Positions 580 through 7,045 of a stretch of DNA of 9,283 nt are shown here, in pieces. The DNA is taken from the NCBI GenBank assembly GCA_946886375.1, contig CAMPIL010000126.1:1-9283 (forward strand), written 5' to 3'. Both the position numbers and the translations under genes were made by a program. The first letter of the stretch is position 1. Each line of letters begins with the position of its first letter. The notes beneath the pieces are model-generated. The model saw nothing but the letters and a program-made list of their open reading frames with translations, was not told the origin of the DNA and searched no databases. The DNA is from an uncultured Phycisphaerales bacterium (lineage in GTDB: Bacteria; Planctomycetota; Phycisphaerae; Phycisphaerales; SM1A02).

Positions 580-647
580 CAGAAGTCAGAGGTCAGAGAT
601 CAGAGGTCAGCAGGAAAGGAAGTCAGAGATCAGCGGTCAGAGGTCAG
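580..647 (+). repeat. Heptamer array A (CAGAGGT-type units)
   Basis: Imperfect 7-base units of the form CAG(A/C)(A/G)(A/G)T occur at 580, 587, 594 and 601. A disrupted stretch at 611-623 follows, then further units at 624, 631 and 638 with a final CAG at 645-647. This is the reverse-complement orientation of arrays B and C, which lie nearer to and beyond the four-helix-bundle gene. Confidence 0.85.
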
Positions 648-667
648 CGATTACACTTGCACCTTTG

Positions 668-702
668 CTTCTGAACTCTGACTTCTGACCTCTGACCTCT
701 GA
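668..702 (+). repeat. Heptamer array B (CCTCTGA-type units, inverted relative to A)
   Basis: Five contiguous units are visible: CTTCTGA, ACTCTGA, CTTCTGA, CCTCTGA, CCTCTGA. They are the reverse complement of array A, so arrays A and B with a loop of about 20 bases (648-667) could form an imperfect hairpin between the upstream gene and the four-helix-bundle gene. The array ends 8 bases before the ATG at 711. Confidence 0.85.
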
Positions 703-2320: not shown

Positions 2321-3094
2321 ATGGCCCAAGCATACACCCCAGGCTTAAAAGTCACGCAACGCATCGTGCATCGCACTCGGCGCGTTCTCCCCATCGCAGG
2401 CGAAGTGCTCGTCAATCTTGGCCAGTCCGTCAATGCACGCGATGTCGTCGCGCAGACCTTCATGCCCGGCGAGATCACGCCCCTCAACATGGCGAACCTC
2501 CTCTCCATGCAGCCCAGCGACGTGCCTGACTGCATGCTCAAAAAGGAAGGCGAGCGCGTCAGCGTCGGCGATTCCCTGGCCCGCACCAAGGGCATCTTCG
2601 GGATGTTCAAGAACGAATACAAATCCAAGGTCGCCGGAACCCTCGAAGCCGTTTCGGCAATTACGGGCCAGGTCATCGTTCGAGGCGAACCGCTGCCCGT
2701 GCAGGTCCAGGCTTTTCTCGCAGGCAAAGTGACGGAAATCATCCCCAGGGAAGGCTGCATCATCGAAGCCGAGGTCGCCTTCATCCAAGGCATCTTCGGC
2801 ATCGGCGGCGAAACGCATGGCAAGATCAAACTCGCCTGCCAAGGGCACGATGAAGAACTTTCCGATGACCTCATCACCCCTGAAATGAAAAACTGCATCG
2901 TCGTCGGCGGGGCACGCGTGACCGAAAAAGCCATCGAAAAGGCTCGGTCCGTCGGCGCAGCCGCCCTCGTCACCGGCGGCATCGACGATCAGGACCTCAA
3001 GACATTCCTCGGCTACGACCTCGGCGTCGCCATCACCGGATCAGAAAAAGTCGGCCTGACCATCATCATCACCGAAGGCTTATTATATATATAA
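2321..3094 (+). CDS. N-terminal part of interrupted barrel-sandwich/KOW protein
   Basis: Residues 1-257 of a cytoplasmic-looking protein, cut short by a TAA at 3092-3094 inside the A/T-only tract. There is no signal peptide or membrane segment. Residues about 24-50 and 75-130 resemble a barrel-sandwich (lipoyl/RnfC-like) arrangement: GEVLVNLGQSVNARDVVAQTF, then KKEGERVSVGDSLAR and GTLEAVSAITGQVIVRGEP. No biotinyl/lipoyl Lys motif is seen. Residues about 188-250 look like an alpha/beta unit (MKNCIVVGGARVTEKAIEKA, AAALVTGGIDDQDLKTFLGYDLGVAITG). ATG 2321 is preferred over GTG 2285, which would fall in the candidate promoter. The frame is identical to the fragment at 3182-3448. Read through, the two give one 375-residue protein, so I regard this as half of a single gene. 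It is the first gene of the five-gene cluster. Confidence 0.8.
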   Translation: MAQAYTPGLKVTQRIVHRTRRVLPIAGEVLVNLGQSVNARDVVAQTFMPGEITPLNMANLLSMQPSDVPDCMLKKEGERVSVGDSLARTKGIFGMFKNEYKSKVAGTLEAVSAITGQVIVRGEPLPVQVQAFLAGKVTEIIPREGCIIEAEVAFIQGIFGIGGETHGKIKLACQGHDEELSDDLITPEMKNCIVVGGARVTEKAIEKARSVGAAALVTGGIDDQDLKTFLGYDLGVAITGSEKVGLTIIITEGLLYI

Positions 3095-3156
3095 ATTTAA
3101 TATATAAAATTAATAATTATTTAATATAATTAATTAAATTATTATTAATTAAAATT
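3080..3156. other. 77-base A/T-only tract replacing coding sequence of equal length
   Basis: No G or C occurs between C3079 and C3157 in an otherwise GC-rich gene. The gene frame contains five TAA codons here (3092, 3098, 3122, 3131, 3146). The frame is unchanged across the tract. Reading each A as A or C and each T as T or G allows ordinary GC-rich codons throughout: TTA=TTC, TTA=GGC, ATA=ATC, TAA=GCC, ATT=ATG, AAA=ACC, ATT=CTG. These restore F-G-x-I-A-M-A-x-R-T-F-x-L-L and, at the end, N-G before S-T-Q-I-R. The first altered base would be about 3082 and the last about 3156. The tract itself is seen directly, and the decoding is inference guided by my memory of this protein family. Confidence 0.9.
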
Positions 3157-3181
3157 CTCGACGCAAATTCGCGCAGGCGTC

Positions 3182-3448
3182 ATGCGGCCCGAGGTCCTCA
3201 TTCCCCTTGCCGGACTTGCAACCAGTCAGCCGGCGGCGGCCGACCGCGTGGACGGCCTGCTGGAAATCGGCCGTCCGGTGCGGATCATCCGCGACCCGTA
3301 TTTCGGACAGATTGGGTGCGTCAGCGGGCTGCCTCACGAACCGCACGTGCTGGGGTCGGGCTCCAAGGCCCGCGTGCTCGAGGTGAAGTTCGATTCGGGC
3401 AAGCGGGTTGTGATCCCTCGTGCTAATGTGGAGTTGATTGAAGGGTGA
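3182..3448 (+). CDS. C-terminal KOW-like fragment of the interrupted protein
   Basis: 88 residues from ATG 3182 to TGA 3446-3448. The in-frame sequence just upstream (S-T-Q-I-R-A-G-V then M-R-P-E-V) reads as normal protein and connects this piece to the 2321-3094 fragment, so the ATG is probably an internal methionine and not a genuine start. Residues about 26-87 form a small beta-barrel of KOW/SH3-like type: LLEIGRPVRIIRDPYFG, QIGCVSGLP, ARVLEVKFDSGKRVVIP and a closing ANVELIEG. KOW-like barrels bind RNA or protein partners in NusG and ribosomal proteins. The partner here is unknown. The stop lies 4 bases before the next gene, whose Shine-Dalgarno is inside this gene's last codons, which indicates translational coupling. 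As an independent gene it is doubtful. As the 3' part of 2321-3448 it is well supported. Confidence 0.8.
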   Translation: MRPEVLIPLAGLATSQPAAADRVDGLLEIGRPVRIIRDPYFGQIGCVSGLPHEPHVLGSGSKARVLEVKFDSGKRVVIPRANVELIEG

Positions 3449-3452
3449 CCCC

Positions 3453-4382
3453 ATGAGACGAATCTTCCTGATCGGAATTGTCGCCGCCCTGTCCTGCTGC
3501 GCAATGGCTGCAGCAAGCGCGCCCGCGCCCGCGACAGCGCCAGCCGATGAGACCTTCAAGCAAATGATCGATCGAACCGTGTTCGATGTTGATCGCGGTT
3601 GGCTGGCGCTGATCGTCCTGATCATTTGCGGATCGGTGATCACATTCATCCTTCTGGCCCGAGCGGGCGTGCCGCTGAAGATTCGCAAGATCGCGGGTCT
3701 GGAAGCGGTCGATGAAGCCGTCGGTCGCGCGACGGAAATGGGTCGTCCGGTGCTGTTTGTGCCGGGCATCCAGGACATGAACGACATGATGACACTGGCC
3801 GGCCTCACCGCGCTGGGGCGCGTGGCGAAGACGGTTGCGGAATACGATGCCAAACTGGAAGTGCCAACGAGCAAGTCACTGGTGATGACGGCGGCGCGGG
3901 AAACGGTGAAGTCGGCGTTTCTTTCCGCCGGCCGTCCCGACGCCTACAACGAAGAACTCATCTATTACGTCACCGATGAACAGTTCGGATACGTGGCGTA
4001 TCTCAGCGGCCACATGGTGCGGCAAAAGCCCGCGGCGTGTTTCTATCTGGGAGCGTTCTTTGCTGAGTCGCTCATTCTTGCAGAGACCGGCAACGCGGTG
4101 GGCGCCATTCAGATCGCAGGAACCGCGGAAACCGCGCAACTTCCGTTCTTCGTCGCCGCATGCGACTACACGCTCATCGGCGAGGAATTTTACGCCGCTT
4201 CGGCTTACCTCTCTGGCGAACCCGATCAACTTGGATCGCTGCGCGGCCAGGACGTGGGCAAGATCCTTGTCGCGTGTGGATTGCTCATCGGCTGCGTGAT
4301 CGCCACGGGCGCTTCGCTGCAGGGCCCGGATTCGGCCTTCGCGCACTCGCTTGAATACATCATGACCCACCTGCTTCGCTAA
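3453..4382 (+). CDS. DUF6754-like membrane-anchored protein
   Basis: 309 residues. AAGGG at 3441-3445, 7 bases before ATG 3453, fixes the start. The in-frame TTG at 3438 overlaps the previous gene and is less likely. Residues 1-23 look like a signal peptide or signal anchor (MRRIFLIGIVAALSCCAMAA), followed by an Ala/Pro-rich linker. A membrane segment at about 48-69 is followed by a basic stretch (KIRKIAG), which places the large domain (about 75-265) on the cytoplasmic side. A second hydrophobic segment lies at about 269-288. The soluble part looks alpha/beta (GRPVLFVPGIQDMNDMMTL, SKSLVMTAARETV, GAIQIAGTAETAQLPFF). It resembles what I recall as the DUF6754 family, which has no assigned function. 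The protein sits second in the cluster. No catalytic motif is recognised. Confidence 0.8.
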   Translation: MRRIFLIGIVAALSCCAMAAASAPAPATAPADETFKQMIDRTVFDVDRGWLALIVLIICGSVITFILLARAGVPLKIRKIAGLEAVDEAVGRATEMGRPVLFVPGIQDMNDMMTLAGLTALGRVAKTVAEYDAKLEVPTSKSLVMTAARETVKSAFLSAGRPDAYNEELIYYVTDEQFGYVAYLSGHMVRQKPAACFYLGAFFAESLILAETGNAVGAIQIAGTAETAQLPFFVAACDYTLIGEEFYAASAYLSGEPDQLGSLRGQDVGKILVACGLLIGCVIATGASLQGPDSAFAHSLEYIMTHLLR

Positions 4383-4399
4383 AGGACGCGATTCACGCC

Positions 4400-5107
4400 A
4401 TGAAACGCACTGCACCGCTGCTCATCACGTCGATCGCCGGGATCATCATGGTCCTCGCGTATTTCATCCCGCCGGCCAAGAACTGGGGCGAGGAAGTGGC
4501 GGTGTGGTTCGACATCCTGGCTGCGATCGCATTCGTGTTGGGCGGCGGCAACCTGCTCAAGATTCAACTGAAAAAAATGTCCGACCAGTCGCCGGGCTGG
4601 GGCTATGCAGCAGTCACGGCGATCGCGTTTGTCCTGACGCTGGTTGTCGGACTTGGAAAAGTCGGCGTGCCTCCCAGCCTGGAATTCCCGAATTACGGCT
4701 GGAGCGGCTCCTACAACCAGCAGGGCGGCATGTTCTGGTGGCTGTACGAATTCGCGATGAAACCGCTTCAGGCCACGATGTTCGCCATGCTGGCGTTCTA
4801 TGTGGCGTCGGCGGCGTTCCGGGCATTCCGGGCCAAGAACATGGAAGCGTCGCTGCTGCTGGGCACCGCGTTCATCATTCTGCTCGGCCGCACGTATGCC
4901 GGGGTCTGGCTGACAGATGGCATTTCCGATGAACCCAGCTCGTGGTGGCGCAACCTGCGGCTGGAGAACGTTTCAGACAGCATTCGCGGATTGTTCACAA
5001 CCACCGGCACCCGCGCGATCATGATCGGCGTGGCGCTGGGCATTGCCTCCACATCGCTCAAGATCATTCTGGGCGTCGATCGCTCGTACCTGGGATCCAA
5101 GGACTGA
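4400..5107 (+). CDS. Six-helix integral membrane protein, unknown function
   Basis: 235 residues from ATG 4400, 17 bases after the previous stop, with AAAGGA at 4381-4386 as a somewhat distant ribosome-binding site. Hydrophobic segments lie at about 5-24, 33-52, 68-88, 124-143, 149-170 and 205-225. Between the third and fourth is an aromatic, Gly-rich loop (NYGWSGSYNQQGGMFWWLYEF) that is probably extracytoplasmic. Basic loops (KIQLKK, FRAFRAKN) suggest cytoplasmic faces after the second and fourth segments. I recognise no transporter or enzyme signature. Its constant neighbours (a DUF6754-like protein and an anchored alpha/beta protein) suggest it is one of the membrane subunits of a complex. 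The coding call is firm and the function is unknown. Confidence 0.85.
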   Translation: MKRTAPLLITSIAGIIMVLAYFIPPAKNWGEEVAVWFDILAAIAFVLGGGNLLKIQLKKMSDQSPGWGYAAVTAIAFVLTLVVGLGKVGVPPSLEFPNYGWSGSYNQQGGMFWWLYEFAMKPLQATMFAMLAFYVASAAFRAFRAKNMEASLLLGTAFIILLGRTYAGVWLTDGISDEPSSWWRNLRLENVSDSIRGLFTTTGTRAIMIGVALGIASTSLKIILGVDRSYLGSKD

Positions 5108-5111
5108 ACCG

Positions 5112-5966
5112 ATGTACGAACTGCTGAAAAATCTCGATCGCCGATGGGTCTTCCTGCTGATGGCTATCGCCGTCTCCGTGCCCATTCTGCTTCAACTGAG
5201 TTTCCCGGAAAAAGTCAGTCCGCTGACGGCTGACGCCTACGCCCAATTGGAGAAGATTCAGCCGGGCGACAAGGTGTTGCTGTCATTTGACTTCGACCCC
5301 TCCAGCGCGGGCGAGTTGACGCCCATGGCCACGGCCTTCACCTACCACGCCGCCAAGCGCGGGGCCAAACTCTACTTCATGGCGTTGTGGCCCGTCGGTC
5401 CGCAGATGGTCGAGGAAACCATTGCCAAGGTCATCAAGAACGACTTCCCGGAAATGAAGTACGGCGTTGATTACCTCAATCTGGGTTACAAGAGCGGCAA
5501 CGAGGGCGTGATCAAGGTCATCGTCACCGACCTGAAAAAACTTTACACAACTGATCACTTCGGCACCGGCATCGGCACAATCCCCATGATGGAAGGTGTC
5601 AGCAGCGTGCAGGACATGAATTTGATCGTCAACGTCAGCGCCGGCTATGTCGGGGCCAAGGAATGGGTGCAATATGCCAAGACCGCATTCCCGGACAAGA
5701 TCGAATTGGTCGCCGGTTGCACAGGCGTGCAGGCTCCCCCCCTGCTTCCGTACATTCCCAACCAGTTGCCCGGACTGGTCGCAGCCATCAAGGGCGCGGC
5801 CGAGTACGAGAAACTGCTCGTTGACGAGTACGGACTGGAAGATCAGCCGCGCTACAAGGAAGGCCTGCGCCGCATGGGTTCACAACTCGTGGCCCACGTG
5901 CTCATGATCGCGTTAATCGTCACGGGCAACGTTATTTTCTTCATTGGCCGAAGGGAGGCTCGCTGA
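5112..5966 (+). CDS. Double-anchored protein with extracytoplasmic alpha/beta domain, unknown function
   Basis: 284 residues. ATG 5112 lies 4 bases after the previous stop, and an upstream in-frame ATG at 5043 would overlap the preceding gene heavily. A basic N-terminus (KNLDRR) followed by a membrane segment at about 12-30 and a second at about 257-278 places residues 31-256 outside the cytoplasm. That domain alternates strands and helices: GDKVLLSFDFDPSSAGELTP, AAKRGAKLYFMALWPVG, GVIKVIVTDLKKLY, DMNLIVNVSAG, KIELVAGCTGVQAPPLLPYI. One Cys (203) sits in a Gly/Pro-rich loop. No known enzyme motif is evident. The tail GRREAR is basic and cytoplasmic. The stop overlaps the next gene's start by one base (TGATG), showing tight coupling. 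It probably interacts with the flanking membrane proteins. Confidence 0.85.
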   Translation: MYELLKNLDRRWVFLLMAIAVSVPILLQLSFPEKVSPLTADAYAQLEKIQPGDKVLLSFDFDPSSAGELTPMATAFTYHAAKRGAKLYFMALWPVGPQMVEETIAKVIKNDFPEMKYGVDYLNLGYKSGNEGVIKVIVTDLKKLYTTDHFGTGIGTIPMMEGVSSVQDMNLIVNVSAGYVGAKEWVQYAKTAFPDKIELVAGCTGVQAPPLLPYIPNQLPGLVAAIKGAAEYEKLLVDEYGLEDQPRYKEGLRRMGSQLVAHVLMIALIVTGNVIFFIGRREAR

Positions 5967-7045
5967 TGAAACGCGAGGGATTGATCTGGCTGGTTGTTCT
6001 CGCGATCGGCGTGGTCCTGCTGGCGATTCGCATGTCGCTTCCCGGCGGCGTGGGGAAAGAATATGTGCGTGAGGTGCCCAAGACCTACGTGCAGGTGACG
6101 CGTCCGGTCGAAGGAACCGATCGAAGCGAAACAGTGTGGGTGCAAGCCGATCTTCCGGAGGCCACCGCGAACGGCGTTTCACGCACTGCGGAGCAACCCG
6201 TTTCGTGGACGACCTACGAAGCCGCTTATGAGCGAGATGTGGCGACGGGCAACAAGGTCTATTTCAGTTGGAGTCGAACGCTTGGGACGTGGCTGGCGGC
6301 GTTCCTCACCCTTTCGATCTTCTCATTCCTCTATCGCGACAATCCGTTCTACAAACTCGCTGAATCCCTTTTCATCGGCGTGTCCGCAGCGTATTGGATG
6401 GTCGTGCAGTTCTGGAGCGTGATCGTCCCCAATCTGCTGGGCAATCTCATTCCCATGCCTGTGCGCGACTGGGCCATGCCCGGCCTGGAAACCACGCACC
6501 CGCACCTGGTGTACATCGTTCCGCTGATTCTTTCGGTGATGCTGCTGTGGCGATTGATGCCGGCGGGCGGGTGGATTTCGCGCTGGCCGCTGGCGTTCTT
6601 TATCGGCGTGTTCGCGGGTCTGCGGATGATTCAGTTCATCCAAGCCGACTTCCTCAATCAGATTCGCAACGGCATCCTGCCTCTTATCGTGACCAGCGCT
6701 GATTGGATTCGCGCGTTCCCCGATGCGGCGGCAGAAGTCGGGGGCAATCCGACCTGGCAGCCTTGGACCACCTCCATCTGGAACATCATTTCCGTGCTGG
6801 GCGTGCTGGCGTGTTTGACGTACTTCTTCTTCTCCATCGAGCACAAGGGAGTGGTCGGCCGGGTGGCACGCGTGGGCACTTGGATTCTCATGATCACCTT
6901 CGGCGCGATGTTCGCATTCACCGTGATGGGACGCATCGCGCTCTTGACCGGGCGATTGGAGTTCCTGTTCATCGACTGGCTGCGGCTGATTGATCCCGCA
7001 GGCACCCGCAGCGCTGTGGCGGCGACGGTGGGCATTCTGTGGTGA
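5966..7045 (+). CDS. Polytopic membrane protein (about 7-8 helices), unknown function
   Basis: 359 residues. ATG 5966 overlaps the preceding TGA by one base, and GGGAGG at 5954-5959, within the end of the previous gene, is the ribosome-binding site. One membrane segment at about 7-23 is followed by an 80-residue hydrophilic stretch (30-100), likely extracytoplasmic, and then by hydrophobic segments at about 105-123, 134-156, 181-197, 205-225, 269-290 and 303-325, with a further hydrophobic patch near 331-340. A Trp/Pro-rich segment (NPTWQPWTTSIWN) precedes the sixth segment. I recognise no family. As the last gene of the unit it probably supplies the largest membrane subunit. An inverted repeat lies beyond it. 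Confidence 0.85.
   Translation: MKREGLIWLVVLAIGVVLLAIRMSLPGGVGKEYVREVPKTYVQVTRPVEGTDRSETVWVQADLPEATANGVSRTAEQPVSWTTYEAAYERDVATGNKVYFSWSRTLGTWLAAFLTLSIFSFLYRDNPFYKLAESLFIGVSAAYWMVVQFWSVIVPNLLGNLIPMPVRDWAMPGLETTHPHLVYIVPLILSVMLLWRLMPAGGWISRWPLAFFIGVFAGLRMIQFIQADFLNQIRNGILPLIVTSADWIRAFPDAAAEVGGNPTWQPWTTSIWNIISVLGVLACLTYFFFSIEHKGVVGRVARVGTWILMITFGAMFAFTVMGRIALLTGRLEFLFIDWLRLIDPAGTRSAVAATVGILW

What the first reader, a model, noticed from the sequence alone, without database searches (positions are those of the whole stretch)
3080..3156. A/T-only tract that decodes as the normal gene with every C written A and every G written T
Seventy-seven consecutive bases have no G or C, in the middle of a GC-rich coding region. 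This is not an insertion: the frame is identical on both sides. By my recollection of relatives, in which about 26 residues lie between T-E-G and (S/A)-T-Q-I-R, exactly that many codons are present. Treating A as A/C and T as T/G gives a sensible codon at every position: TTA-TTA = TTC-GGC (F-G), ATA-TAA-ATT-TAA = ATC-GCC-ATG-GCC (I-A-M-A), ATA-AAA-TTA = CGC-ACC-TTC (R-T-F), ATT-ATT = CTG-CTG (L-L), a later TTA = GGC (G), and AAA-TTC = AAC-GGC (N-G) running directly into the intact S-T-Q-I-R-A-G-V. All five in-frame TAA stops become Ala/Asp/Glu/Ser codons. The sequence thus looks projected onto the amino/keto (M/K) alphabet. The leading explanation is technical: A/C and G/T share lasers in four-colour sequencing, or M/K ambiguity codes were flattened to A/T. 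A real tract would need saturating C-to-A plus G-to-T change on one strand, for which I know no mechanism. Diversity-generating retroelements target adenine, and deaminases give transitions.
Basis: partly seen in the sequence, partly recalled or inferred. Interest (0 to 1): 0.85.

Follow-up and report, generated by a model that had tools for sequence, protein, structure and literature searches.

The report
Sequencing artefact: two-letter collapse in gene
A 77-base stretch made only of A and T inside an otherwise normal bacterial gene is almost certainly a reading error in which every C was recorded as A and every G as T, so the gene only looks broken in the database.

Summary
Window 3080-3156 is 77 A/T-only bases in a 60% GC gene; no other A/T-only run in the window reaches 10. 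The 118 listed homologues that span the region all have exactly 26 residues there, so nothing is inserted. Read as A = A/C and T = T/G, the tract fits 25 of 26 residues of the nearest homologue and scores +43.9 bits over a random A/T string, against -63 to -99 bits for the three other collapse rules. Relatives' DNA collapsed by the same rule matches it about as well as their flanks match the window's. About 47 G/C bases became A/T; none is left inside.

Best explanation: a technical artefact (0.94). The rule is its own reverse complement, so mates with collapsed 3' ends would agree and merge; it also equals G-to-T on both strands, the 8-oxoguanine spectrum, so a real origin has a name but is very unlikely. 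Reads and platform were not available; the instrument-level cause is inference.

The parts
3080..3156 (+). A/T-only tract: C written as A and G written as T over 77 bases; five in-frame TAA codons
   Evidence: run; codon fit 0.845; 23 of 26 columns; DNA-level match; +43.9 bits for the C>A, G>T rule.
3157..3160 (+). Ragged right edge: 3157 is a normal C, but the following codon (3158-3160) reads Ser where the family has Ala, so the collapse probably reaches one base past the run
   Evidence: Column 27: A in 141 and T in 7 of 148 unique rows, Ser in none; one codon only, so weak.
2321..3448 (+). Gene of a conserved 375-residue protein family of unknown function (some members match Pfam Biotin_lipoyl), read in one frame on both sides of the tract and cut short by it as written
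   Evidence: P0055 matches PF00364 at 2.2e-5 whereas P0002 and P0003 match no Pfam family.
2321..3094 (+). The 257-residue product as written, present in the public protein database as P0001
   Evidence: P0001, 257 aa, 100% identity; its C-terminus ends in the tract's first codons.

Best explanation
The tract is a technical artefact (probability about 0.94 for that part). The organism most likely carries an ordinary intact gene; over about 77 bases the data behind the assembly lost the distinction between A and C and between T and G, so C was written A and G was written T. The most likely cause, and the one I commit to at about 0.6, is excess green signal in Illumina red/green two-colour sequencing, where C is red, T is green, A is both and G is dark: added green turns C into A and G into T and leaves A and T alone. 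Because this rule is its own reverse complement, two mates of one short fragment that both went bad in their late cycles would agree on their overlap and merge into a sequence with good ends and a collapsed middle, which an assembler would keep where coverage is low. Shown here: the projection itself, its rule, its extent and its fit to the family. Inferred: that it arose in sequencing, the green channel, the merging of mates and the low coverage.
For: Spacing unchanged in 118 of 118 spanning homologues and 47 of 47 loci. Codon fit under C>A, G>T 0.845 against 0.336 +- 0.072 for codon shuffles and 0.279 +- 0.070 for base shuffles, 0 of 1,000 each reaching it. Nearest homologue fits 25 of 26. 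+43.9 bits over a random A/T string; simulated collapsed family members give 24.5 to 43.7 bits (5-95%); the other three rules give -98.6, -63.4 and -74.1. Collapsed DNA of 47 relatives matches the tract at mean 0.735, their flanking segments at 0.691 to 0.777, unrelated in-frame windows at 0.499 +- 0.059, so no divergence is added beyond the collapse. Of the four single-channel faults in red/green chemistry only 'green stuck on' yields an A/T alphabet, with exactly C>A and G>T (colour code from a passage of PMC13218037). The same paper reports the mirror-image artefact, T>G and A>C, and suggests loss of signal.
Against: The platform and the reads are unknown, so neither the two-colour cause nor low coverage was tested. 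The two-colour artefact in print goes in the opposite direction and is sparse; I found no report of excess green. Three variable columns (12, 17, 20) do not allow the family's commonest residue, and 25 of 155 homologues fit 20 or fewer of 26 columns, no better than the best of 20,000 shuffles. The collapse rules that send both C and G to A, or both to T, also beat their own codon shuffles (0 and 3 of 1,000 reach them), which is expected because each shares half of the rule. P0001 stands for 6 member sequences, whose letters I could not see: an identical tract in independent samples would speak for a real sequence.
Confidence: 0.6

Rival explanations
1. Four-colour Illumina artefact: the images that tell C from A (red laser) and G from T (green laser) were lost for a block of cycles, so that each laser pair collapsed to one letter.
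For: A/C and G/T are the laser pairs and their swaps the commonest substitutions on HiSeq, 29.2% and 26.8% (passages of PMC3334598). On MiSeq the commonest miscall of C is A (58% and 61%) and of G is T (45% and 40%) in the two reads (passages of PMC4381044). Uneven recovery of two filters could also give the ragged right edge.
Against: Two faults must coincide and each must be one-way; in the same papers A also goes to C at high rates, yet no C or G is left in the 77 bases.
Confidence: 0.2
2. Software: M/K ambiguity codes flattened to A/T, or the low bit lost in a 2-bit base code in which A, C, T, G are 0, 1, 2, 3, for a block of bases.
For: Clearing the low bit of that code gives exactly C>A and G>T (arithmetic on ASCII codes, no call). 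Both give a clean interior such as the one seen.
Against: A block error should have clean ends, but the right edge looks ragged (one codon), and 77 to 79 bases is no whole number of four-base bytes. Writing K as T is not the alphabetical default. No such fault is known to me (recalled).
Confidence: 0.13
3. A real mutational event: every G on both strands of the patch became T (G-to-T and, seen from the other strand, C-to-A), as 8-oxoguanine would cause.
For: The rule is its own reverse complement, which fits damage acting on both strands; 8-oxoguanine gives this spectrum (recalled knowledge).
Against: About 47 changes in 75 bases, none of another kind needed, no G or C left inside, intact conserved residues directly on both sides. 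I know of no process that saturates a short patch.
Confidence: 0.03
4. A true A/T-rich insertion or replacement, unrelated to the gene's own sequence.
For: A/T-only DNA is easily recognised as foreign in a 60% GC region.
Against: Spacing unchanged; fit 7 standard deviations above codon shuffles; a literal 42-base piece has no exact match in the viral contigs; no Rfam family in the window at gathering threshold.
Confidence: 0.005

Closest known systems
NovaSeq 6000 two-colour T>G / A>C artefact (PMC13218037; abstract and other passages seen)
   Same: Change of the green signal explains both letters at once; pairs T/G and A/C are the ones involved; strand-symmetric.
   Different: There green is apparently lost (T to G, A to C) at scattered single bases; here green would be gained (G to T, C to A) over a continuous block and fixed into a contig.
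Four-colour laser-pair substitution errors (PMC3334598 and PMC4381044; passages seen)
   Same: A/C and G/T are the confused pairs.
   Different: Scattered and two-way, not a saturated one-way block.
8-oxoguanine G-to-T mutation or library oxidation (recalled; one paper listed, not opened)
   Same: Same substitution pair when both strands are damaged.
   Different: Sparse; no saturated patch with sharp edges.
Diversity-generating retroelements and deaminase editing (recalled)
   Same: Localised, dense, one-way change inside a gene.
   Different: The first changes adenines, the second makes transitions; transition decoding fits 2 of 26 columns and scores -98.6 bits.

Membership tests
Excess-green fault in red/green two-colour sequencing | C becomes A and G becomes T, A and T unchanged | tested here: met
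   enumeration of channel faults.
Excess-green fault in red/green two-colour sequencing | Strand-symmetric result | tested here: met
   C>A with G>T is its own reverse complement; the tract follows it over its whole length.
Excess-green fault in red/green two-colour sequencing | Reads come from a red/green two-colour machine and collapse by cycle or tile | not testable with these tools
   No reads or run data; no genome held for the window.
Four-colour laser-pair confusion | A/C and G/T are the confused pairs | tested here: met
   pairs from passages.
Four-colour laser-pair confusion | Confusion runs both ways, so some A read as C and some T read as G | tested here: not met
   No C or G in 77 bases; a complete loss of two images could still hide this.
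8-oxoguanine mutagenesis | G-to-T on the damaged strand | tested here: met
   The C>A, G>T rule equals G-to-T on both strands.
8-oxoguanine mutagenesis | Scattered changes, most G left intact | tested here: not met
   About 47 expected G/C in 75 bases, none left.
Deaminase editing | Transitions (C-to-T, G-to-A) | tested here: not met
   Mean fit 0.080, 978 and 988 of 1,000 shuffles do as well; -98.6 bits.
Insertion of foreign A/T-rich DNA | Spacing differs from that of relatives | tested here: not met
   26 residues in 118 of 118 spanning homologues and 47 of 47 loci.

The most novel reading that the evidence does not exclude
A real, localised and saturating mutational event in which every G on both strands of a 77-bp patch became T while A and T stayed untouched, by a process not yet described.
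Probability: 0.03. Interest if true: 0.9.

Novelty: not a real feature. Interest (0 to 1): 0.22.

Why it matters
As biology it is probably nothing: the gene is most likely intact in the organism. As data quality it matters a little. A reading fault can be fixed into a public contig as a clean, frame-preserving, strand-symmetric tract that ends a conserved gene and puts a false 257-residue protein into databases (P0001). It can be recognised by one rule, collapsing the homologues by C>A and G>T and comparing, which could be used to screen assemblies for A/T-only runs in genes of GC-rich contigs. If it were real, it would be a kind of local hypermutation that nobody has described as far as I know.

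Tried and rejected
Insertion or replacement: rejected, spacing unchanged. Transition decoding, and collapse of both C and G to A or both to T: rejected. The same tract in viruses: a literal 42-base piece has no exact match in viral contigs. Structured RNA: no Rfam match at gathering threshold. An intact copy from the same species: none at 90% identity or more among the 120 hits listed (8,000 candidates scored) or the 120 listed. Prevalence: in the 300 loci fetched (4,382,963 bases; overlapping copies not removed; about five sixths of them viral contigs chosen through two Pseudomonas phages) no A/T-only run reaches 40; in the 258 loci with GC of at least 0.55 the longest is 23, at locally 39% GC. 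That sample is small and biased and gives no rate. Solved structures: no sequence match for P0002. Literature: nine searches; others returned nothing; three papers were seen, by abstract and passages or by passages only, the rest as listings.

Weak points: three variable columns disagree with the commonest residue. One search used 155 of the 240 proteins then fetched, 148 unique rows; the others lack the full motif (not checked one by one). One search uses small pseudocounts, so its edge ratio of about 1,200 is rough. The observed 43.9 bits lies just above the 95th percentile (43.7) of 500 simulated collapsed members.

Full report
What is there. The window (9,283 bases, 59.8% GC) holds a normal-looking stretch of bacterial genes; the nearest relatives of the affected gene are Phycisphaerales and other planctomycete metagenome bins. 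By Pfam it carries a 23S rRNA-IVP/bAvd-family protein, a GNAT-like protein (E 2.2e-4, below Pfam's cut-off) and a DUF6754 protein, then plsX (FA_synthesis) and a fabH-like gene that runs off the end; the 68-residue ORF before plsX looks like ribosomal protein L32 (recalled, not tested). The gene at 2321-3448 has room for 375 residues and is in one frame at both ends, but bases 3080-3156 contain no G or C and put five TAA codons in frame. No other A/T-only run in the window reaches 10 bases. The protein database already holds the product cut short by this tract (P0001, 257 residues), so the tract stands in a public record.

It is not an insertion. Of the 120 listed homologues, 118 have exactly 26 residues between TEG and xTQIR; the others are the window's own truncated product and a partial sequence. 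All 47 loci found with the N-terminal part have the same spacing.

It is a collapsed copy of the normal sequence. Each tract codon was expanded under the four rules by which C and G could have become A and T. Under C>A, G>T the commonest family residue is allowed in 23 of 26 columns, every column is met by at least one homologue, and the mean fit over 112 unique homologues is 0.845. The other rules give 0.080, 0.377 and 0.414. Codon shuffles give 0.336 +- 0.072 and base shuffles 0.279 +- 0.070; none of 1,000 each reaches the observed value. The two mixed rules also beat their own codon shuffles (0 and 3 of 1,000), as they must if they share half of the true rule. The misfits (columns 12, 17, 20) are variable columns. 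The nearest homologue fits 25 of 26; over 155 homologues the fit runs from 16 to 25, and 25 of them do no better than the best of 20,000 shuffles (20 of 26). With a family profile and the window's own codon usage the tract is 43.9 bits better explained as a C>A, G>T collapse than as a random A/T string of its composition. Simulated collapsed members give a mean of 34.9 and 24.5 to 43.7 bits (5-95%); the other rules score -98.6, -63.4 and -74.1.

The DNA says the same. The corresponding 77 bases of each of the 47 relatives, collapsed by C>A, G>T, match the tract at 0.62 to 0.86, mean 0.735. Four flanking segments treated in the same way match the window at means of 0.691, 0.711, 0.777 and 0.709. 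Unrelated in-frame windows of the same loci (66,358) match at 0.499 +- 0.059, maximum 0.714, which 29 of the 47 exceed. So the tract shows the family's usual divergence and no sign of anything beyond the collapse. About 47 of the first 75 bases were G or C before; the 14 columns that are at least 90% conserved and fit force at least 18 changes.

Edges. On the left the last normal base is C3079 and the first forced change lies within three bases of it (columns 1 and 2 are Phe and Gly in 118 of 118). On the right C3157 is normal, but the codon after it reads Ser where 141 of 148 unique rows have Ala and 7 Thr, so the collapse probably reaches slightly past the run. That rests on one codon.

Mechanism. 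C>A with G>T is its own reverse complement. A fault in either mate of a read pair, or damage to either strand, leaves the same result. In NovaSeq 6000 chemistry T is green, C red, A both and G neither (passage of PMC13218037). Of the four ways in which one channel can be stuck, only 'green on' yields an A/T alphabet, and it gives exactly C>A and G>T. One fault explains the pattern, including that A and T are untouched. The same paper reports the mirror case, T>G and A>C, and suggests loss of signal. I infer, without reads, that green background rose in the late cycles of both mates of a short fragment, that the collapsed ends agreed and were merged or assembled, and that coverage was low. Fading excess green could leave a ragged edge.

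Alternatives. The four-colour laser pairs are the same base pairs and are swapped most often (PMC3334598; PMC4381044), but in both directions, and two pairs must fail together. Flattened ambiguity codes or a lost bit in a 2-bit code would also do.

Limits. No reads, no platform and no whole genome. The same or a very close species occurs in at least one other assembly (P0241, 99% identical DUF6754 protein on a 1,206-base contig), but no intact copy of the affected gene at 90% identity or more was listed. P0001 counts 6 member sequences on one listed contig; I could not see the others, and the same tract in an independent sample would put the artefact reading in trouble.

Verdict. Observation confirmed; decoding confirmed; technical cause about 0.94; excess green in two-colour chemistry the best single cause, about 0.6. 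Not a biological feature.

Noticed in passing
window 580-702, 711-1094 and 1071-1106: A 127-residue 23S rRNA-IVP/bAvd-family protein (PF05635 1.3e-30) is flanked by 7-bp periodic arrays (CAGAGGT / CTGACCT) in inverted orientation (arms 581-616 and 1071-1106, 92% complementary); the right-hand array even forms the end of the reading frame. It looks like a small mobile or repeat-bounded cassette. A three-unit version of the repeat had no exact match in the 300 fetched loci.
   Followed up: partly
P0001, the window's product 2321-3094: The database cluster of the truncated protein counts 6 member sequences on one listed contig of 9,274 bases, 9 fewer than the window. What the other members contain and why the lengths differ is unknown.
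   Followed up: no
window 2321-7045: The affected family lies next to a DUF6754 gene and three further ORFs without a Pfam match (4400-5107, 5112-5966, 5966-7045). Relatives of the affected protein occur in bins labelled Planctomycetota, Cloacimonadota, Poribacteria and others, so this may be a conserved system of unknown function.
   Followed up: no
loci L005, L006, L011, L026, L027: Family members at 52 to 67% identity sit on contigs titled Acidobacteria, Neomarinimicrobiota or Bacillota/Firmicutes; wrong bin labels or wide spread, not checked.
   Followed up: no
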